Translations under genes and position numbers: made by a program | In this document: piece after piece, positions 8,240-20,090 of the stretch | How the letters are laid out: each line of letters opens with the position of its first letter | Position numbering within the stretch: position 1 is the stretch's first letter | Notes under the pieces: model-generated | The model's database searches: none | Told to the model about the DNA's origin: nothing | Seen by the model: the letters and a program-made list of their open reading frames with translations, nothing else | From: Streptomyces sp. NBC_00289 | GTDB taxonomy: Bacteria; Actinomycetota; Actinomycetes; Streptomycetales; Streptomycetaceae | Assembly (NCBI RefSeq): GCF_041435115.1 | Contig: NZ_CP108046.1 | Span: forward strand, 62,001-126,000 | Direction of reading: 5' to 3' | DNA: 64,000 bases

Positions 8240-8290
8240 CATGCCCGATTCATTACTGACCAGTGGTGGGCCCACCCGCCGCGGAGTACG
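8240..8290 (+). pseudogene. 5' stub of the TPR-like gene of the duplicated locus
   Basis: ATGCCCGATTCA at 8240 and the following codons (MPDSLLTSGGPTRRGV) match the beginning of the gene at 34668-35750. After about 8290 the sequence jumps to the interior of a glutamine synthetase-like gene. The junction marks a deletion of everything between the two genes in this copy. Confidence 0.55.
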
Positions 8291-8994
8291 GACTGGAACG
8301 CATGCTGCCCGGGGCCGACATGTGCGCCTACCTCCTGGCCACCGACGTCGACATGGCGCCGCTCGACGGCTTCGACCTCACCGGCTGGGAGCAGGGCTTC
8401 GGCGATGTCTTCGTCCAGCCTGACCTGCCCAGCATCCGCGTGCTTCCCCACCGCTGTGAAACCGCCCTCATCATCGGCACCGCCCTCCACCGGGACGACA
8501 CCCCCATCCAGGTGGCCCCACGCCACCTCCTGCAGACACAGCTCGCCCGGCTGGCAGAACTCGGATACTGGCCAGCCGTAGGCGTGGAAGTCGAAGCCGT
8601 CCTCTACCAGCAGGACGACTCCGGCCGCCGGGCACCGGCAGGGGCAGGGGCAGGGGCAGACAACCGCGACTACGGCCTCCAACACCCGCCGCTCGTCGCC
8701 GACTTCATCCACGACCTGAGCAGGCTGATCGTCGCAGGCATCCGCTACGAAGCGATCAAAGTAGAAGCCGCGCCCGGCCAGATCGAAGTCAGCCTCGCCT
8801 ACGACGCAGCCTTGACCGCATGCGACGACTACGCCGTCTTCCGCGACATCGCACACGATGTCGCCGGCCGGCGCAGCATGGTGCCCGCCTTCATGGCAGC
8901 CCCAGAGACAGGAATCGGCAACGGCCTCCACCTGCGCCTCTCCCTGCGGAACGAACACGGCGATCCGGCCTTCGCCCAAGACCGCGATCAAGGT
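8291..8994 (+). pseudogene. glutamine synthetase-like (gamma-glutamylamide synthetase type) fragment, lacking both ends
   Basis: The frame contains GADMCAYLLATDVDMAPLDG, then VGVEVEAVLY, the EAAPGQIEVSL catalytic-core region and [10 protein letters not shown], all typical of the glutamine synthetase fold. Members that act on amines, including polyamines, neighbour APC permeases, as the full-length copy does here (37365). The 5' end is missing through a deletion joined at about 8290-8300, and the 3' end is cut by ISL3 scrap near 8995, after which the frame reads into transposon sequence. The first 94 bases almost exactly repeat the last 94 bases of the fragment at 37365-37638. Confidence 0.72.
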
Positions 8995-10015
8995 CCTTCA
9001 CCGCTGATGCAGCAGGCCCTTGCGGGTCTTCTCCCGCCCAGGGTGCTGGGGTGGTTCTGCCAGCGGCCGGTGACCAGCTCCTCCCAGGTGACGGCGCGGG
9101 CATAGCGGCGGACGGTGTTGCGGGACAGTTGCAGGCGGCGGGCGATGGCCCGGATGGTGAGGCCCTGGCCGAGGAGATCTTGCACGGCGGTGTGGTGCTG
9201 CCGGGCCCGCTCAGCCAGCCGGCCCGCGTGAGAGAGTGGCGGGTGCAAAATTTCAGGGGCGAATCCGGAGCGGGGGCCGGTTCGCGAAGGCAGGAACTGT
9301 GCTTGCTGACCAGGGACTTCACGGCCTCGGCGAGGTTATGCCAGAGATGCCACACATCGGCGACCTGGACGGGCTCGGGGGCTCCGGCGCGGGCGCCGTC
9401 GGCGAAGGCGCCGCCCTGGTCGCGGCAGATGATCTCCACTCCGGGGTGGTCGGTGAGCCAGGCCGCGAACGTCGCCGCCTCCCGGTCGGCCAGCAGGTCG
9501 ATGGGGGCATGGGTCTCGCAGTCGACCAGCACGGTGCCGTACTTGTGGCCCTTTCGGGTGGCGAATCATCGACCCCGAGGACCCGGGGCGTCTGTGCGTA
9601 CGGATCGTCCAGGGCCATGGCCAGACTCAGCAGAGTGGCGTCGCTGACCGAAGCCGGCAGCCGGATCGCCAGGCGTTCACCGGCGCGGCCCGCCAGGACC
9701 ACCGCGATCGCGCCCAACAGGCCCGTGAGCTGCGGAGTCCGCCGACCGTAACGCACAGTCAGACCATCAACCTGCTCGGCGAACGTCACTCTCGCGCAGC
9801 CCGGGTTGTCGCAGAAAAGACGCCGGACGGTCAACGTGATGAACACCAGGCAGCCGACCGCACCGTCCGCGAGTCGGCGCTCGCAGCCGCTATGCCTACG
9901 CCTCGACAGAACCCCACGGGCCGGGCACGACGCCGAGATCGTCGATGCCGTACTCGCCACGATCCGTAACAGACCGCCCTCTGCTACCACTTGCTTCACC
10001 AGCACCCGCCGAGGT
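8995..10015 (-). pseudogene. ISL3-family transposase, frameshifted and truncated
   Basis: From about 10015 the minus strand reads the ISL3 N-terminal zinc-ribbon domain and RRLFCDNPGCARVTFAEQVD, then ALAGRAGE-like helices and RVLGVDD, the start of the DDE core. After a frame change near 9560 it continues [20 protein letters not shown] and [12 protein letters not shown], and after another change near 9250 it ends in an HTH-like [19 protein letters not shown]. It interrupts the glutamine synthetase-like gene at its 3' edge. At least two frameshifts make it inactive. Confidence 0.72.
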
Positions 10016-10140: not shown

Positions 10141-10983
10141 TCAGTACCCTCCAGCACGCCCTCGACCTGCAACCCTCACGCCAAGTTGACACCGCTCCCA
10201 CAACGCCTCACGGTGGACTGTCAGCCTATCGAGGACAACCTGGCCCATCGGAGTCAGGGACGGGTGGCCAGCAGCCAGGTCGAGACAGCCGGAGAAGTAG
10301 TCGATCAGATAGCGTACACGGGTTTCACCGTCCGGCATCCCGGCGCCAGCGCAAGCGTAAAATTTGATGGCGGAAGCGGCGAAATGAGCGGCGACAAGTA
10401 CACCTCGCAGTGTCCTGTCAGAAGTTCCCGACGGGAGGACGAAGTCCTCCGGAGCGTCGCCTTTCTGGAGGTCGCAAATTTCCGCGATGAAGTGGAGCCA
10501 TACATGGGCCTGCTCGTGCACGAGGATTTCCTCGAGCGGATGTGGAGAGGAGAACGCACCTTCACCCAGGTAGATGGTCTGGGGAATCAGGAGGTCGGTG
10601 GCACTGCGGACTCCCAGCTTTTGGATCTTACGGTAGCGAAGCGGGATCGCGAACAGCGGCGCCCAACTCGCGACAGCTCCCGCCACCCCGGTGAGCGCAC
10701 TGGAGACACGGCGTTCCTGATCGCCCGTGAGCGGCACCCAGTGGTAGTCGTAGTCGTTGCCCTGGCCATCGGTCATCTTCCGGTAGATGGCTGTCGCATT
10801 TCCGGGGTCAAGGTAGTCGACGAGGCTCGCGTGCCCGGTGGGATCGAGATTGCGGCGCATGGTGGCGACGAGTGTCAGTAGTGTCGAGGGCCGGAACGAA
10901 TCGTCGAGAAAGGGCAAGCCCCCTATCTCGTCAACCAGGTCACTGAAGCTTCCATATGACTGGTCCTCGCGCTGGTCACCCAT
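10141..10983 (-). CDS. HExxH-motif peptide-modification protein (mod_HExxH-like), RiPP cluster
   Basis: About 280 residues from ATG 10983, chosen because GGGAG lies 7 nt upstream; the longer frame to 11157 has no good start. The key motif is LEEILVHEQAHVWLHFIAEI (about residues 150-170), giving HEQAH, followed by VLPSGTSDRTLRGVLVAAHF, which matches the S..R.dpR.l.Gvlh region I recall for TIGR04267 proteins. That family is associated with peptide natural products; some members are described as 2-oxoglutarate-dependent HExxH peptide beta-hydroxylases. Its neighbours, TfuA and YcaO, support this. A metalloprotease acting on the leader is the main alternative. Confidence 0.65.
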   Translation of the reverse strand: MGDQREDQSYGSFSDLVDEIGGLPFLDDSFRPSTLLTLVATMRRNLDPTGHASLVDYLDPGNATAIYRKMTDGQGNDYDYHWVPLTGDQERRVSSALTGVAGAVASWAPLFAIPLRYRKIQKLGVRSATDLLIPQTIYLGEGAFSSPHPLEEILVHEQAHVWLHFIAEICDLQKGDAPEDFVLPSGTSDRTLRGVLVAAHFAASAIKFYACAGAGMPDGETRVRYLIDYFSGCLDLAAGHPSLTPMGQVVLDRLTVHREALWERCQLGVRVAGRGRAGGY

Positions 10984-11319
10984 GAGGTCTCCCGTGTTCT
11001 CTGTGCTGGTCAATCTGATTCCGGAGCAGCGGTGCCGCTCAGGTCTTGACCGGAACGGCGCCTCGCTCTGATGGAGAGCCCGCGAGTCCGGGAAGAACTG
11101 GCAGGCACCGAGCAACAAGTCTGTGGTGAAAGACTCTGTTGCTCTATTCCCAAGCAACGCGGCTGTCAGTACGTCCAGCGCCTGGCCGGGGCGTCACGAA
11201 TCGGGCAAATCAACTCGCCAGGTAGGCGAAGCGCGAGTTCGGCGAACTAAGCAAGTGAGTTGGTAAAGATGGCAAAGTGCAGGCCATGAGAGGTCGTTTT
11301 CCCGTCTTCGTCAGCAGAA
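10984..11319. other. gap between the TfuA-like and HExxH genes
   Basis: 336 bp in which I see no convincing gene. The HExxH frame extends upstream to 11157 without a ribosome site at any alternative start, so I regard this as noncoding and possibly holding a separate promoter. Confidence 0.4.
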
Positions 11320-12003
11320 TCACCGGGCGGCCGTGCTCAGCTTCTCTACTGTCAGCCAGGGCTTTTCAGCCGCGAATCCGAGCAGATCCAAAGTTTTGAG
11401 GCGGAAATGGTCGAACTCGGCCATCTCAGAGTCGACCTGATGGGGTGCCAATTCCAGGGAAGCGACTAGGGCGCGCTTGAGGCTGTACAGGGTCCGCTCC
11501 GCGTACCAGCGCTGCTTGAGGTTTGCAGTGATCTGCCGCCCGGTTTCGCTCGCGAGCTGGCCCCGTGCCACGAGGTCGGCGATGAAGGTACGGATGTGGA
11601 TCATGGGCTCTGACAGCGGCACGAATGGGGCATCGACGCCGTGCATGAGGGTGACTTCATCGTCGTCGAAGTCCTCGTTTGCGATGTACTGCTCGTAGAC
11701 TGCGCCATAGCCATGCATGCCGAGGTGGCGCATTTCGGCGGCCCGGATTGCACCCATGGAACAGAGGCCCCAAACCTGCCAGCCGGCTTCGAGTGCGGCA
11801 CGGAGCTCGGCGTGGCCGACGGAGGGGTAGCTGTGGAACGTACCATCGACAATCGCGACGCGCCCGGGCCCGTGGGATCGGATTAGCTCCTGAATGTCCC
11901 CCCTCCGCACCGGCGGATATAGCCGGACATCTTCGCCGAAGGTGTCCCGAAGGTCAATGCCGTGAGACGTCGGGCCGACATAGACGATGAGCTCAGTGGT
12001 CAC
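11320..12003 (-). CDS. TfuA-like protein, thioamidation partner of YcaO
   Basis: About 227 residues from GTG 12003, with GAAGG 8 nt upstream and only 11 bp after the ycaO stop, so translation is probably coupled. It starts TTELIVYVGPTSHGID and contains VAIVDGTFHSYPSVGHAELR and GAIRAAEMRHLGMHGYG, all typical of the TfuA core domain. In thioamitide pathways and in methyl-coenzyme M reductase maturation, TfuA works with YcaO to convert a backbone amide into a thioamide, probably by delivering sulfur. The neighbouring YcaO and short precursor gene make the same role likely here. Confidence 0.87.
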   Translation of the reverse strand: MTTELIVYVGPTSHGIDLRDTFGEDVRLYPPVRRGDIQELIRSHGPGRVAIVDGTFHSYPSVGHAELRAALEAGWQVWGLCSMGAIRAAEMRHLGMHGYGAVYEQYIANEDFDDDEVTLMHGVDAPFVPLSEPMIHIRTFIADLVARGQLASETGRQITANLKQRWYAERTLYSLKRALVASLELAPHQVDSEMAEFDHFRLKTLDLLGFAAEKPWLTVEKLSTAAR

Positions 12004-12014
12004 GACACGCGCCT

Positions 12015-13217
12015 TCAGGAATTCACGAGAGTTGCAAGACGAGGGCCCACACGCTTTAGCTCGGGTTGGAAATGTTCGAGCTTCGGGACGACGACCTTGA
12101 CGGCTGAAAGTGGTGCGAAGCGCTGGGAGAGGACCACGCGAAGGACCTGCCGGATCCCGCGCCGGCCGAGTGTTTCAATCAGTGTGCCAAGCGCACTGTC
12201 AATGTCGATCGCGGCGTTCGAAGCGTCGGGGATGGCGGAGTACTGAATGCATTCTGCGGAGTCGATGGCCTGCTCACGGGCCGCGCTCATCGCCTGTTTC
12301 TCGAACTCCCGCCCATAGCGAGCGAAGTACTCGTGGCGGTCGACGAGGTCGTCGCGGCCGCCATGGATATGAGTGAGCCGCGACTGGGCGGCCTCAGACA
12401 GCGCGCGGACAGCTGCGATGTTTTTCACGAGGTGCAGTCCGGCGCCGTAGGCAAGGGCAACCGGAGCATCGTCGGACGACTCTAGGAGGAATGCGTCGAA
12501 GTAGGGCAGTTCGAACTCGTTCGGGGTGTAGCGGATAACCGCTTCAAGACCAGCGGACACAATTTTGGAACGGAGAACCTCAATATGGGCAGTTGGGTCA
12601 CCGAAATTTACACGACGTGAGGTGTTCTTGAAGTAGTTAAGTGACCTAATGTCGCGTTCGATGACCTCGCAGAGGCCGTGCACCGTGGCCTCATCGATCG
12701 AGTTTCCTGAACATAGCCCATTGGTTCCGGAGCCGAATATCCGCTGCCCCGGGTTCTCTGGAAAAGGATGGTAGGCGAGCTCTGCGGGGACCAGCAATGT
12801 GCGTCCTGTAGTAACGTCTTCAGCCTCGACGCAGGCAAGAGCTCCGTCCGGGTCGACCGGAACCCCCATAACCGGGCAGAGGTCGACAAATTCGAAATCC
12901 GCCCACTGCTGCGAAGCCACCTCGCGCGGAGTGGACATGATAATCTCGATCTCGCGGTTTCGGTATTCTGCGAGCGCGAATTCGATGGCCTCCATGTAGG
13001 CCCCCACTCGGGCTTCTTCCGGATATGCGCCCTTTCCAGCATTGACGCAGAGAGATTTGGAGTCCGGGCGAATGCTGGCAAATACTGGAATGCCAATGCA
13101 GTCGAGCCAAGTAGTATCCGTCACTCTAACAATGCCGAGTTCTTTCGCTGCTACTTTCGCCCGCGACAGAGTTTCGGCCAGCGGTGCAGTTCGCAGGCTT
13201 GAGGTCATCCGATGCAC
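12015..13217 (-). CDS. YcaO-domain ATP-dependent peptide backbone-modifying enzyme
   Basis: About 400 residues from GTG 13217, chosen because GGAGGG lies 7 nt upstream; ATG 13208 is an alternative. ATP/Mg-binding motifs of the YcaO fold are present: YMEAIEFALAEY near residue 80, then NGLCSGNSIDEATVHGLCEV followed by IERD near 180. It lacks a proline-rich PxPxP C-terminus, as do many stand-alone YcaO proteins that use TfuA rather than a cyclodehydratase partner. YcaO activates an amide oxygen by phosphorylation; with TfuA the product is normally a thioamide. The substrate is probably the 53-residue peptide encoded just upstream. Confidence 0.9.
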   Translation of the reverse strand: MHRMTSSLRTAPLAETLSRAKVAAKELGIVRVTDTTWLDCIGIPVFASIRPDSKSLCVNAGKGAYPEEARVGAYMEAIEFALAEYRNREIEIIMSTPREVASQQWADFEFVDLCPVMGVPVDPDGALACVEAEDVTTGRTLLVPAELAYHPFPENPGQRIFGSGTNGLCSGNSIDEATVHGLCEVIERDIRSLNYFKNTSRRVNFGDPTAHIEVLRSKIVSAGLEAVIRYTPNEFELPYFDAFLLESSDDAPVALAYGAGLHLVKNIAAVRALSEAAQSRLTHIHGGRDDLVDRHEYFARYGREFEKQAMSAAREQAIDSAECIQYSAIPDASNAAIDIDSALGTLIETLGRRGIRQVLRVVLSQRFAPLSAVKVVVPKLEHFQPELKRVGPRLATLVNS

Positions 13218-13282
13218 GTTGCGCCCTCCGCCCAATAGGTCCGAACGGTTCGGTGTGGCGGCGGACCGGTATCAACTGCCGA

Positions 13283-13320
13283 CGGTCGTTGTGGAGCAGT
13301 TAGGTGCTCCACAACGACCG
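13283..13320 (-). terminator. perfect hairpin between precursor gene and ycaO
   Basis: CGGTCGTTGTGGAGC (13283-13297) and its exact complement (13306-13320) form a 15-bp stem with an 8-base loop. It lies 14 bases after the precursor stop and 66 bases before the ycaO start. No U-run follows. Such a structure can act as a partial terminator or as a 3' mRNA stabiliser, giving more precursor than enzyme mRNA; this role is inferred. Confidence 0.6.
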
Positions 13321-13333
13321 GCCGCCGAATAAA

Positions 13334-13495
13334 TCAGTTGGCGACAGTAGGGGTCTCCGGGTTGACGTCGGTGATCCCCTCAGAGAGGGCGTGGTAACCT
13401 GCAAACATGGGGCCTTCGTCGGTCAGCAGATCGGAGAACTTCTCCACGGCGGCCTCATCAAGGACGAAGTTTCCGGAAAACATACCGCTATTCAT
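13334..13495 (-). CDS. candidate RiPP precursor peptide, 53 residues
   Basis: ATG 13495 to TGA 13334, with AAGGG about 9 nt upstream. The peptide begins MNSGMFSGNFVLDEAA and ends ITDVNPETPTVAN. The N-terminal two thirds are acidic and helix-prone (LDEAAVEKFSDLLTDE), as leader peptides usually are; the C-terminal part, GYHALSEG to TPTVAN, would be the core. It is the first gene of the minus-strand run toward YcaO, TfuA and the HExxH protein, the normal place for a precursor. It has no cysteine, which argues against azoline chemistry and for backbone thioamidation or side-chain hydroxylation. I do not recognise the sequence. The cleavage site is unknown. Confidence 0.72.
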   Translation of the reverse strand: MNSGMFSGNFVLDEAAVEKFSDLLTDEGPMFAGYHALSEGITDVNPETPTVAN

Positions 13496-13883: not shown

Positions 13884-15600
13884 CCTCGATTCGTCAGCGG
13901 GGTTCGATCGCTGATCGGTCCGGCGGTTCGCCTGTAATGTCCTTGGCCGGTGTAGGACAGGTCGTCGCGTGACGCTGCGGCTGCGCCGGGTTCCACGGGC
14001 CCGGAGACTGCGAGGCTCCTCCTTCCTGATCCTCGTCGGGGCAGTTCCCGGCCGTCAGGTGACGGCCGGGAGGGCGGTGAGCCGCTGCCAGCAGGTAGTG
14101 AACGCCGATGCCCAGGGCCAGGTCCGCTCGATGCGCAGCCATCGGCGGCGGGCGTGGTCGGCGAGGCGGGCGGGCAGGTGGTAGAGGCGGAAGCGCATGG
14201 TGTCCGGCTCGGCGTCGGCCAGGCCCTCGTTGTCGTGCAGGGCCAGCAGCCGCACCCAGGCGTCGAGATCACTCGCGAGGTTCGCGGCGAGCATCCAGCC
14301 GCGATTCACCTCCCATGACGCGGAGGGTAAATTGTCCAGCCCCATGGCCTTGTTGGTGCGCACCCGGTCTTCCACACCGGCATGCGAGCGGTGCAGCACG
14401 TCCAGGAACTGGCTGTGGCCCGAGCCGGCGATGCCCCACATGTGGCGGATGTTGGTGGCGGTGATGCAGTAGCGCCAGCCGGTCTTCTTCTCGAACGCGG
14501 TCAGTTTCTTCAGGTGCCGCCGGGTGGGCTTGACCCGGCGCACGATCAGCCGCATGCCCTCGGGCCAGCCTTCACGGGTGTTCAGCCCGGTCAGCTCCGC
14601 GACGAAGTAGCCCTCCTGGAGGCTGCCGTCCTGGTGCACGGAGGTCTCCCAGGCGCTTTCGGGCAGCTTTGCGATGGCCTTCTCGTCGTCTTCGGTGATC
14701 TTCCAGCCGACGGTGTAGCGGACCGTGCGCCGGGTGGTGTTCAGTGCTTCGAGGTGTTCCAGCAGCCCGTGGGTAGCGCCGGCCCCGTCCACCCGCACCA
14801 GGATTTTCGCCGTGGAGGAGCCGGGGATCTGGGCGAGCGCGTCGGTGAGCACGGCGAGGTGGTCGGCCACCGTGTTCGCCCCTGCGTTGCCCGGTCGCAT
14901 GAGCATGGCCAGCGATTCGGTGGTGTTCGCGCACCACGCGGCCAGTGGATGAAACCCGAACGTCTTTTTGAAGGTGACCGCAGCCCCGGTCTTCTTCGAG
15001 GCTGCGGTGATGACGGTGGCGTCAAGGTCGATGACGATCCAGCCGGTCAGCCGCTTGCCCGCCACCGTCAGCCAGGGGAAGCCGCCCTGCCGCAGGTGCA
15101 GCAGGCTCCACACGTGCCGGCGCACCCTCGCCCGCGCCTTTGCGACCTTCGACAGGGTGGCCACGTCAAGGGCGGCCAGCGTGCGGCGGGCGGTTGAGTC
15201 CGAGGCCGCAGCCCCGAACAACGGCCGGTAATACGACTGGAGTTGCCCGGCTTCCGAGAAGTTCGCCGCTCCCAGCACGATCGCGACCGCGAGGTGCACC
15301 AGCACCCCTGCGCGGTCCCGCCAACCGGCCACTGTGCCGGACGGCAGCACCCCGGCCAGCGCCTCCGTCAGTCCCGTGCGGTCTGCGCACCGGCGCAGCA
15401 GCACCGCCCCGGTATGCCCGACCAGCCTCTTCCCGTCAGCCGCCACGGACAGCCGACGGTCCCACCCTGTACTCTCGACCACCAGAAAGGTGCCTTGCTC
15501 TCTGCAGCGGATACGACCTAGACACTCGCATCCTCGCAGGTCAACGGCACCTTTCTGCTATCGGGGCGTCAGATCACCCAATTCCGCTGAATACCCAGGG
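13884..15600 (-). mobile_element. IS1380-family element, complete
   Basis: Bounded by CCTCGATTCGTCAGCGG at 13884 and the inverted end ...CCGCTGAATACCCAGGG at 15600. CTAG is duplicated at 13880-13883 and 15601-15604, the 4-bp duplication expected of IS1380. About 1.72 kb with one intact transposase gene; related elements lie at 46104-47797 and 54643-58105. Confidence 0.87.
14055..15482 (-). CDS. IS1380-family DDE transposase
   Basis: An unbroken frame of about 475 residues, the usual length for the family. It has the DDE_Tnp_1-type core: GWIVIDLDATVITAASKKTG carries the first Asp, KILVRVDGAGATHGLLEHLE the second, and the C-terminal domain contains RSHAGVEDRVRTNKAMGLDN with the expected Glu. 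It ends LTALPAVT close to the terminal repeat. The intact frame and matching target duplication suggest an element that moved fairly recently. Confidence 0.87.
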   Translation of the reverse strand: MVESTGWDRRLSVAADGKRLVGHTGAVLLRRCADRTGLTEALAGVLPSGTVAGWRDRAGVLVHLAVAIVLGAANFSEAGQLQSYYRPLFGAAASDSTARRTLAALDVATLSKVAKARARVRRHVWSLLHLRQGGFPWLTVAGKRLTGWIVIDLDATVITAASKKTGAAVTFKKTFGFHPLAAWCANTTESLAMLMRPGNAGANTVADHLAVLTDALAQIPGSSTAKILVRVDGAGATHGLLEHLEALNTTRRTVRYTVGWKITEDDEKAIAKLPESAWETSVHQDGSLQEGYFVAELTGLNTREGWPEGMRLIVRRVKPTRRHLKKLTAFEKKTGWRYCITATNIRHMWGIAGSGHSQFLDVLHRSHAGVEDRVRTNKAMGLDNLPSASWEVNRGWMLAANLASDLDAWVRLLALHDNEGLADAEPDTMRFRLYHLPARLADHARRRWLRIERTWPWASAFTTCWQRLTALPAVT

Positions 15601-18091: not shown

Positions 18092-18420
18092 TGAGGTTCC
18101 CCCGAGTTGCGGCAGGCGTTGGCAGAGAGGCGGATGGGTTGCATGAGAGGAGCCCAGGCGATGCCTGCCCCGTACCCGCTGGAGTTGCCTGAGCGTGCGG
18201 TGCGGATGTACCGCGCTGCCGAGCCGAAGCCGGTCATCCGCTGTATAGCCGAAAAACTCGGCTTGCATCACGAGGCCTTGCGCGGCTGGATCCGGCAGGC
18301 CGAGGCCAACACCGGTGAGCAGGACGACCTGCTCGCCACCGAGGAAAAGGAGAAACTCGCCCAGCTGCGGCGCGAGGTGAGGGAACTGCTCTGGGCGAAT
18401 GAAGTCCTGCGGACGAAGTC
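18092..18420 (+). pseudogene. IS3-family OrfA, 3'-truncated
   Basis: A likely IS3 terminus (TGAGGTTCCCCCGAGTTGCG) at 18092 precedes OrfA starting at ATG 18161 behind GAGGAG. It reads MPAPYPLELPERAVRMYRAA, a helix-turn-helix (IRCIAEKLGLHHEALRGWIR) and the coiled coil EKLAQLRREVRELLWANEVL. The normal C-terminus (LKAASAFFA type) is missing; the sequence changes at about 18420 and no OrfB follows. Confidence 0.65.
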
Positions 18421-18819
18421 GTGCTGGCGTATGCCGCAGCCGAGTACGATTACCGGCCCGTCTCCGAAGCCATGGTGAACATGCGCTACCGGCTGCACCG
18501 GGCAGAGGCGGCAGGGCTGATCAGCGCCAACAGCAGGGCATGGCAGGTGCATAGAGCCATGGACGCTTCCTGGCCCGACGGCAACTGGCCCCGGCACCTG
18601 CACCAGGCACAAGCCGACGGCCTGCCGTCCGAGGAGGCCGACCGGCTGTGGGAGTCCATCGGCACCGAGCGCCCGGATCTCAAAAGCAATGGCAAAGCGC
18701 TCCACCTGCTCGCCCGTCCCCGAGAGCGGACTACAGACGTAACGGCTGAGCCGTTCGTGTTCGAAACCACCAACGTCTGGCAGCGGATGCAAGCCCACCA
18801 GGCAACCACCCCGTTGTGA
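18421..18819 (+). CDS. unrecognised protein, probably 5'-truncated, coupled to the MFS gene
   Basis: A frame of about 132 residues (LAYAAAEYDYRPVSEAMVNM ... QRMQAHQATTPL) that begins exactly where the IS3 fragment ends, so its natural start is probably lost. Its TGA overlaps the GTG of the MFS transporter by 4 bases (GTGA), which argues that it is a real gene of the same operon. I cannot assign a family; it is hydrophilic with no membrane segment. Confidence 0.4.
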   Translation: MLAYAAAEYDYRPVSEAMVNMRYRLHRAEAAGLISANSRAWQVHRAMDASWPDGNWPRHLHQAQADGLPSEEADRLWESIGTERPDLKSNGKALHLLARPRERTTDVTAEPFVFETTNVWQRMQAHQATTPL

Positions 18820-20090
18820 CGTCGATCCAGCCCTCACCCGTCCAAGCAACGGACCGGCTGCCACGCTCCTACTGGCAGCTGTGGACCCTATCCCTGCTCA
18901 CCGCCCTGGGCGGCTTCATCGTCCTATTCCTCACGCCCTACCTCACCGAAAGCCTCGGTCACAGCCCCGTCTTCGCCGGCCTGGCTATCACCTGCTTCGG
19001 CGCTGGCACCCTCGCCGCGCCCCTGGGTGGCATCCTCGCCGACCGCTTCGGCCCCCGCCCCATAATGTTGACTGCCCAACTACCCAGCGCCGCAGCCCTG
19101 CTGGCCCTCGGCCACGTCCGTCACCCTTGGCTCATCGTCACCTGCGCGGGCCTGGCTGGGCTCACCACCAGCACCGCCCGTGCCGCCCGCACCGCGATGA
19201 TCACCAACATCGTGCCTGCCGCCCAGCGTCTGAAAGCCTTCTCCTACACCTACTGGGCCACCAATATCGGCTACGGCGTGGCCCCCCTCGCCACCGGCGT
19301 CCTCATCGACCACCACAGCGCCTGGCTCTTCACCGGCAGCGCTGCCATCACCGCCGCCTGCGCCCTGTTCGGCTACCGGATCCCACAAGGCCACCCTCCC
19401 CCCATGCCCGACGCCGCAGCTGCGGCGTCGGCCGTCCACAGGCCAGCGCAACCTGGCCAAGCAGCGCCTCCCGACCCAAGTGCCCTCCCGCGCCGGTCTC
19501 CTGCGGCCTGGCGCTGCGGGAGTCTGCCGTATGCGCTCATCGGCTCCTTCCTGGTGTGCCTGCTGTTCAAGCAGGCTTCCGTGACCCTCCCGGTCTCCCT
19601 GCAGGCCGACGGCCTGAGCAGCACCGTCTACGGCACCACCCTGGCCGTCAACGGTGTGCTCATCATCGCCCTGCAAGTCCCCTTGACCCGCTGGCTGACC
19701 GGAAAGAACGAAAACCGCATCCTCGCTGTCGCCGGCGCACTAGTAGGTCTCGGCTTCGGACTCACCGCCCTGGCCGACACGGCTTCGACCTACACCCTCA
19801 CCGTCGTGGTGTGGACGGTGGGCGAAATGCTTTATACCCCCGCCTTCGCGACCCTCACCGCCAGATTGACCCCTGACGGCCGCCACGGCTACTACCAGGG
19901 CATCGCCGCCTCCACTACCTCGGCAGCTGGCCTCATCGCCCCGGCCACCGCCGGACTGGCTCTCACCGCCGTCGGCCTCATCCCCTGGTGGGGCCTCTGC
20001 ACCGCCCTGGGCGCCCTCAGCGCTGTTCTGTTCCTCAAAGCCAGCCAGCGATCCGCCCACTCCAGCAGTCTTACCCAGACCGCCGAATGA
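18816..20090 (+). CDS. MFS transporter, drug-efflux type
   Basis: About 424 residues, GTG start overlapping the previous stop. Roughly twelve hydrophobic segments span the protein, beginning LTALGGFIVLFLTPYLTESL. The first cytoplasmic loop carries the MFS signature GGILADRFGPRP (about residues 67-78). The central loop is long and rich in Pro/Ala (PMPDAAAAASAVHRPAQPGQ). Membrane exporter; substrate unknown. It is about 5 kb from the RiPP locus and on the opposite strand, so I do not assign it as that locus's exporter, though it cannot be excluded. Confidence 0.8.
   Translation: MTSIQPSPVQATDRLPRSYWQLWTLSLLTALGGFIVLFLTPYLTESLGHSPVFAGLAITCFGAGTLAAPLGGILADRFGPRPIMLTAQLPSAAALLALGHVRHPWLIVTCAGLAGLTTSTARAARTAMITNIVPAAQRLKAFSYTYWATNIGYGVAPLATGVLIDHHSAWLFTGSAAITAACALFGYRIPQGHPPPMPDAAAAASAVHRPAQPGQAAPPDPSALPRRSPAAWRCGSLPYALIGSFLVCLLFKQASVTLPVSLQADGLSSTVYGTTLAVNGVLIIALQVPLTRWLTGKNENRILAVAGALVGLGFGLTALADTASTYTLTVVVWTVGEMLYTPAFATLTARLTPDGRHGYYQGIAASTTSAAGLIAPATAGLALTAVGLIPWWGLCTALGALSAVLFLKASQRSAHSSSLTQTAE

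What the first reader, a model, noticed from the sequence alone, without database searches (positions are those of the whole stretch)
10141..13495. Compact RiPP-type locus: precursor candidate, YcaO, TfuA and HExxH modification protein
Four minus-strand genes run in one direction. YcaO plus TfuA is the established pair for backbone thioamidation (thioamitides, methyl-coenzyme M reductase maturation). A mod_HExxH/peptide-hydroxylase-like protein beside them is not a combination I know from a characterised product, so a thioamidated and hydroxylated peptide is a plausible new natural product. No peptidase, transporter or resistance gene is visible, and the locus is hemmed in by ISL3 and IS3/IS1380 scrap, so it may be incomplete or depend on genes elsewhere.
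Basis: partly seen in the sequence, partly recalled or inferred. Interest (0 to 1): 0.92.

Follow-up and report, generated by a model that had tools for sequence, protein, structure and literature searches.

The report
Four-gene cassette for a modified peptide
A soil-type bacterium carries a four-gene kit (a small peptide plus enzymes expected to swap a backbone oxygen for sulphur and to add a hydroxyl group) that recurs in the same order in distantly related bacteria, and whose product I could not find characterised.

The parts
13334..13495 (-). RiPP precursor peptide, 53 aa: leader with LDEAAVEKF...TDEG, core PMFAGYHALSEG..., variable C-terminus (boundaries inferred)
   Evidence: One of 61 related peptides; relatives sit first in the same operon; AAGGGAT upstream of the ATG
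13278..13325 (-). RNA hairpin between precursor and YcaO (arms 13278-13298 and 13305-13325), probably an attenuator or mRNA stabiliser that keeps precursor above enzyme levels (inferred)
   Evidence: Inverted repeat I3; hairpins of other sequence at the same place in L006, L007, L008, L012, L027, weaker in L005
12015..13217 (-). YcaO: ATP-dependent activation of a peptide backbone amide; GTG start
   Evidence: PF02624 E 4.4e-58; best solved match 6pe3 (MJ1094) E 3.1e-34
11320..12003 (-). TfuA: partner protein for sulphur delivery in thioamidation
   Evidence: PF07812 E 1e-34; solved TfuA-domain protein 6xp8 E 3.9e-19, SMGA(I/L)RA stretch kept
10141..10983 (-). alpha-KG-HExxH-type peptide hydroxylase, 280 aa, ATG start after a 336-base gap
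8894..9532 (-). ISL3-type transposase fragment bordering the cassette
   Evidence: PF01610 E 1.8e-5
14058..15482 (-). DDE group 1 transposase bordering the cassette on the other side
   Evidence: PF13701 E 1.3e-49

Best explanation
It is a compact RiPP biosynthetic cassette. The precursor's N-terminal part (LDEAAVEKFSDLL-TDEG) is the leader bound by the enzymes. YcaO uses ATP to activate a backbone amide and TfuA delivers sulphur, giving a thioamide; I place it at or next to the invariant AG of the core. The HExxH protein then uses Fe(II), alpha-ketoglutarate and O2 to hydroxylate a side chain in the following segment: Phe, His or Asn in the common AGFVxHExNN core, Tyr34 or His35 of the AGYHALSEG core here. 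In some relatives a dedicated TldD/TldE pair would cut off the leader and an MFS protein would export the product. Neither adjoins the window's cassette, so here these steps use genes elsewhere (one TldD/TldE pair at 7.78 Mb, ThiF-like genes at 3.8 Mb) or are lost. Shown by computation: gene content, family membership, fold of the HExxH protein, conserved order, the precursor family. Inferred: leader boundary, modification sites, order of reactions, export, and whether the copy in this strain is expressed.
For: YcaO and TfuA families. HExxH subfamily of 28 proteins: 28 of 28 match TIGR04267, HExxH, R193 and H200 invariant in 28 of 28, alpha-KG-HExxH fold. Order precursor-YcaO-TfuA-HExxH in 7 distinct loci: window, L005, L006, L007, L008, L012 (same contig as L026), L027; a weaker precursor-like end in Chitinimonas L011. 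Precursor family of 61: [MI]xAG in 61 of 61, AGF[VI]xH[EQD]xNN in 56 of 61. In 295 Streptomyces genomes the precursor is found in 3, the close HExxH subfamily (E at or below 1e-35) in 5, TfuA in 50, nested. Private sulphur relay in Pseudomonas: a 91-aa protein ending AVAGG (L006-L008) and ThiF-rhodanese. Of 6 Streptomyces genomes examined, a second TldD/TldE pair only in the 2 with the L027/L012 cassette, beside it. Hairpin after the precursor.
Against: The core here departs from 56 of 61 family members, so its product may differ or the gene may be decaying. No exporter, peptidase or sulphur carrier was seen among the neighbours scanned (the rest of the 64 kb was not surveyed for them). Transposases hem it in and its GC is lower than its surroundings (0.57-0.63 against about 0.69). 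TIGR04267 is just under its cut-off for the single protein. By sequence the best solved match of the HExxH profile is marginal (E 0.87). Three more distant Streptomyces loci (L028, L029, L040) have YcaO-TfuA-HExxH but no detected precursor of this family. L009 and L010 look decayed and gave no precursor. No experiment shows either modification.
Confidence: 0.74

Rival explanations
1. A relic: a once-working cassette, carried in by mobile DNA, that lost exporter and peptidase genes beside the transposons and now makes nothing.
For: Transposases on both sides; no MFS, TldD/E or ThiF next to it, unlike Pseudomonas and L027/L012 relatives; core lacks the VxHExNN segment; a truncated TfuA lies about 5 kb away.
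Against: All four ORFs are open, the HExxH residues conserved in its subfamily are kept, RBS-like stretches are in place, and the copy near the other end is identical. The sister locus in Actinoallomurus is just as bare: none of the 17 other ORFs called in 20.7 kb is MFS, TldD/E or ThiF by Pfam. P0086 has a similar changed core, GFHAVSEADN.
Confidence: 0.2
2. YcaO-TfuA modifies a housekeeping protein (as for McrA, or ribosomal protein uL16, the latter seen only in a search listing: PMC13063428), and the small ORF is not the substrate.
For: Among NCBI models the McrA-thioamidation pair is the best match (TIGR03266 226.2 bits, NF033432 128.5 bits).
Against: Both are far under the curated cut-offs of those models (365 and 235.2). 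The small ORF has a conserved family and place, and in 295 Streptomyces genomes it is found only in 3, all with the enzymes; so the locus is rare, unlike a housekeeping function.
Confidence: 0.04
3. The HExxH protein cleaves the precursor, hydrolytically or by oxidative backbone cleavage, rather than only hydroxylating it.
For: PflC, of the same superfamily, performs oxidative cleavage at an ARMD motif and hydrolysis when the leader is absent (PMC12636437, passages). The bare cassettes have no other protease beside them.
Against: Reported alpha-KG-HExxH enzymes beta-hydroxylate (PMC13060819, passages); no ARMD motif appears in the conserved columns; L027 and L012, with a dedicated TldD/TldE pair, still have the HExxH gene.
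Confidence: 0.15

Closest known systems
Putative 'YcaO cluster' of Pseudomonas (PMC8719888, eLife 2021; passages seen)
   Same: Precursor, YcaO, TfuA, then an 'unknown domain protein' where my Pseudomonas loci L006-L008 have the HExxH gene; then ubiquitin-like, E1/ThiF and MFS genes, as in L006-L008.
   Different: The passages name no HExxH hydroxylase, core motif or product; the last gene is called a methyltransferase where Pfam finds Cupin_8/JmjC in L006-L008. The window has only the first four genes and another core. That the two are the same cluster is my inference from gene order; no sequences of the paper were compared.
alpha-KG-HExxH peptide hydroxylases: ChlB/ChlH, SjiH, PflC/PosC, BpmH/BipH, PesO
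   Different: Stand-alone 280-aa subfamily, 14% identical to the two solved ones, paired with YcaO-TfuA; the reported ones seen in the passages pair with radical SAM or MNIO enzymes.
YcaO-TfuA thioamidated RiPPs: thioviridamide-like thioamitides, thiovarsolins (PMC6511847, passages)
   Same: YcaO and TfuA adjacent, precursor beside them.
   Different: None of the other thiovarsolin genes (heme-oxygenase-like, ATP-grasp, amidinotransferase) is among the four; another precursor.
std cluster of Streptomyces thermodiastaticus (PMC13174530; abstract and passages seen)
   Same: A YcaO-TfuA pair with an iron oxygenase that hydroxylates the same peptide; the nearest characterised logic that I found.
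   Different: The oxygenase is an MNIO, with a peptidase-carbamoyltransferase; core is SNKEWQE.
McrA glycine thioamidation (YcaO/TfuA of methanogens)
   Same: Best NCBI model matches; best solved YcaO match MJ1094. Thioamide on glycine there suggests the invariant Gly33 as a site (inference).
   Different: Substrate is a large enzyme; scores fall under the equivalog cut-offs.

Membership tests
YcaO-TfuA thioamide RiPP clusters | YcaO and TfuA genes adjacent | tested here: met
   11 bases apart; PF02624 and PF07812
YcaO-TfuA thioamide RiPP clusters | short precursor gene conserved beside the enzymes | tested here: met
   61-member family; same place in 7 distinct loci, the window included
YcaO-TfuA thioamide RiPP clusters | thioamide in the product | not testable with these tools
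   needs mass spectrometry
alpha-KG-HExxH peptide beta-hydroxylases (TIGR04267) | profile match over the curated cut-off | tested here: inconclusive
   39.2-39.6 bits against 40 for the protein; 40.8 with its neighbours in the frame in the genome search
alpha-KG-HExxH peptide beta-hydroxylases (TIGR04267) | fold of the solved HExxH oxygenase domain, and HExxH motif | tested here: met
alpha-KG-HExxH peptide beta-hydroxylases (TIGR04267) | alpha-ketoglutarate-dependent hydroxylation | not testable with these tools
   needs assay
McrA-glycine thioamidation pair (TIGR03266, NF033432) | scores over the equivalog cut-offs | tested here: not met
   226.2 of 365 and 128.5 of 235.2 bits
std-type clusters | SNKEWQE core in the precursor | tested here: not met
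   absent from the 53-aa peptide; motif taken from the abstract of PMC13174530
std-type clusters | MNIO gene in the cluster | tested here: inconclusive
   none of the four proteins matches an MNIO family at E 1; the rest of the window was not searched for one
Pseudomonas 'YcaO cluster' of PMC8719888 | order precursor, YcaO, TfuA, fourth gene | tested here: met
   window and L006-L008 against the listed order; identity of the fourth gene is inferred
Pseudomonas 'YcaO cluster' of PMC8719888 | ubiquitin-like, E1/ThiF and MFS genes follow | tested here: not met
   an ISL3-type fragment and a truncated glutamine-synthetase-like gene follow in the window

The most novel reading that the evidence does not exclude
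The cassette defines a RiPP family of its own, present in Actinomycetota and Pseudomonadota, whose core MxAG-F-VxHExNN carries both a backbone thioamide at the AG and hydroxylated Phe, His or Asn residues. The window is a core-switched branch (M-F-A-G-Y-H-A-L-S-E), which would mean that the AG unit is what YcaO-TfuA reads while the segment after it is free to change, so that the enzymes tolerate different cores.
Probability: 0.4. Interest if true: 0.75.

Novelty: new variant of a known kind. Interest (0 to 1): 0.62.

Why it matters
A minimal set of one precursor and three enzymes, found in the same order in distant phyla and with a strongly conserved core, is an easy system in which to test how thioamidation and alpha-KG-HExxH hydroxylation share one leader. 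The natural core variants among Actinobacteria could tell which residues each enzyme needs. Such core conservation (56 of 61) from Streptomyces to Pseudomonas hints at a conserved role, for example metal binding or signalling, rather than a fast-changing antibiotic (inference). In the papers that I could search, the family seems to have been noted only in passing.
Full report
OBSERVATION. YcaO matches PF02624 (E 4.4e-58) and TfuA PF07812 (E 1e-34). The HExxH protein matches TIGR04267, named by NCBI 'aKG-HExxH-type peptide beta-hydroxylase', at 39.2 bits with a cut-off of 40; the whole-genome search gives 39.9, 40.8 with its neighbours in the frame. YcaO is better started at GTG 13217, which gives the (V/M)HRMTSSL N-terminus that relatives share. 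YcaO and TfuA are 11 bases apart; HExxH begins 336 bases after TfuA, whereas in L005, L006 and L008 the two overlap or lie within 8 bases.

PLACE. The window is C1:62001-126000 of an 11.0-Mb genome; a second copy lies in opposite orientation near the other end of the 10,626,179-base contig, and all four proteins are 100% identical there. I read this as the terminal inverted repeat of a linear Streptomyces chromosome (inference). The four genes are poorer in GC (0.57-0.63) than their neighbours (about 0.69) and lie between an ISL3-type fragment and a DDE group 1 transposase, which fits import by mobile DNA (inference).

RELATED LOCI. A scan of genome contigs with the alignment found 8 loci. TfuA lies next to HExxH in 8 of 8 (only part of it in L010), YcaO in 7 of 8 (only its second half in L009), and the window's precursor detects a relative just upstream of YcaO in 5 of 8: Actinoallomurus L005, Pseudomonas L006, L007, L008 and Streptomyces L012. 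Chitinimonas L011 has a weaker precursor-like frame ending WVAHQANNEL. L028, L029 and L040 have distant YcaO-TfuA-HExxH with a gene that is only weakly methyltransferase-like (below Pfam cut-offs in L028 and L029) and, in L028 and L029, a 2OG-Fe(II) oxygenase gene, but no detected precursor of this family. A concatenated tree of 11 loci puts the window with Actinoallomurus (100/98), then with Pseudomonas (96/98); the YcaO tree agrees, the TfuA and HExxH trees leave the pair unresolved, and Chitinimonas is a long branch.

PRECURSOR FAMILY. Two profile searches give 61 peptides of 36-78 aa, window included, all without a functional name in the listings. [MI]xAG is in 61 of 61, and AGF[VI]xH[EQD]xNN in 56 of 61. 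The five without the latter are the window, Actinoallomurus (P0053), Streptomyces BF23-19 (P0067), Micromonospora (P0087) and P0086 of unnamed source. P0086 reads MRAGFHAVSEADN and the window MFAGYHALSEGIT, so the window's core looks like a shared variant rather than noise (inference). By identical longest-contig length, 8 of 28 HExxH representatives (the window included) share a contig with a precursor representative (inferred from the lengths). Of 295 Streptomyces genomes, TfuA is found in 50, the close HExxH subfamily in 5 (E at or below 1e-35) and the precursor in 3; the 3 lie within the 5 and the 5 within the 50. Leaving out the window's own genome, 2 of 2 precursor genomes fall among 4 of 294 (about 1 in 7,000 by chance, my arithmetic), before adjacency is counted; the profiles may contain proteins of these same genomes.

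SUPPORTING PARTS IN RELATIVES. Pseudomonas L006-L008 continue with a 91-aa protein ending AVAGG (ThiS/ubiquitin-like judged by its ending and place only; Pfam finds no family in the L007 copy), a ThiF-rhodanese protein, an MFS protein and a Cupin_8/JmjC protein: apparently a private sulphur relay, which fits thioamidation. Streptomyces L027 and L012 have an MFS protein after HExxH and a TldD/TldE pair read away from the precursor. Their genomes have two such pairs each, while the window's genome, G252, G284 and G861 have one, so the extra pair is probably the leader peptidase (inference). Actinoallomurus L005, like the window, is bare: of the 17 other ORFs called in its 20.7 kb none matches MFS, TldD/E or ThiF in Pfam. 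The window's genome has one TldD/TldE pair and ThiF-family genes (best C1:3846884-3847588, E 9.5e-85) far from the locus, which could serve.

HAIRPIN. Between precursor and YcaO the window has a 21-base inverted repeat (13278-13325). Hairpins of unrelated sequence stand in the same gap in L006, L007, L008, L012 and L027 (z -4.0 to -5.4 against 200 single-base shuffles; window -5.4); L005 is weaker (-2.0). This is common in operons that need more precursor than enzyme (general knowledge) and supports the precursor being real.

MECHANISM. YcaO activates an amide with ATP and TfuA supplies sulphur (established for the families; passages of PMC13174530; the paper on TfuA function is not held). Since AG is kept by all 61, and McrA thioamidation, the best-matching NCBI models, is on glycine, I place the thioamide there. 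The HExxH enzyme would act on the next residues. Leader cleavage and export come from elsewhere in this strain, if they happen.

PRIOR NOTICE AND NOVELTY. A 2021 study of Pseudomonas lists a 'YcaO cluster' of precursor, YcaO, TfuA, unknown domain protein, ubiquitin-like, E1/ThiF, MFS, methyltransferase (PMC8719888, passages); the 'unknown domain protein' most likely is this HExxH enzyme (inference). Two surveys of thioamide clusters (PMC6511847, PMC8120280) have no occurrence of HEXXH in the main text (passages also). Searches listed no characterised product of this combination. So the kind (thioamidated RiPP) is known, the combination and the core family are uncharacterised as far as I could search, and the window is a variant within it.

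Noticed in passing
window 18107-20090: A truncated TfuA (PF07812 E 0.00058, residues 3-45 of the frame at 18421-18816) lies behind a transposase ORF with an HTH_Tnp_1 domain (18107-18475) and is followed by an intact MFS gene (18816-20090): apparently the remnant of a second TfuA locus about 5 kb from the cassette.
   Followed up: partly
window 8263-9105: A glutamine-synthetase-like gene (PF00120, matched over profile positions 2-185 of 344) truncated beside the ISL3-type transposase fragment.
   Followed up: no
L028:6181-6495, L029:12928-13512, L040:5860-6177: In three distant Streptomyces YcaO-TfuA-HExxH loci a conserved protein of about 105 aa (TRxTTxxERxNIxGIxL...) is encoded on the opposite strand; it may be another kind of substrate, not detectably related to this precursor family.
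   Followed up: partly
L009:9269-10783: TfuA and HExxH form one open frame of 504 aa in Streptomyces sp. A1277, beside a YcaO that matches only in its second half.
   Followed up: partly
L027:3936-6703 and L012:4759-7556: A second, cluster-linked TldD/TldE pair in two Streptomyces, probably a dedicated leader peptidase.
   Followed up: yes
G000:C1:5543492-5547747 and C1:5799042-5799536 (L034-L036): Three further, larger HExxH genes of family TIGR04267 in the same genome (128-177 bits), not beside any TfuA.
   Followed up: no
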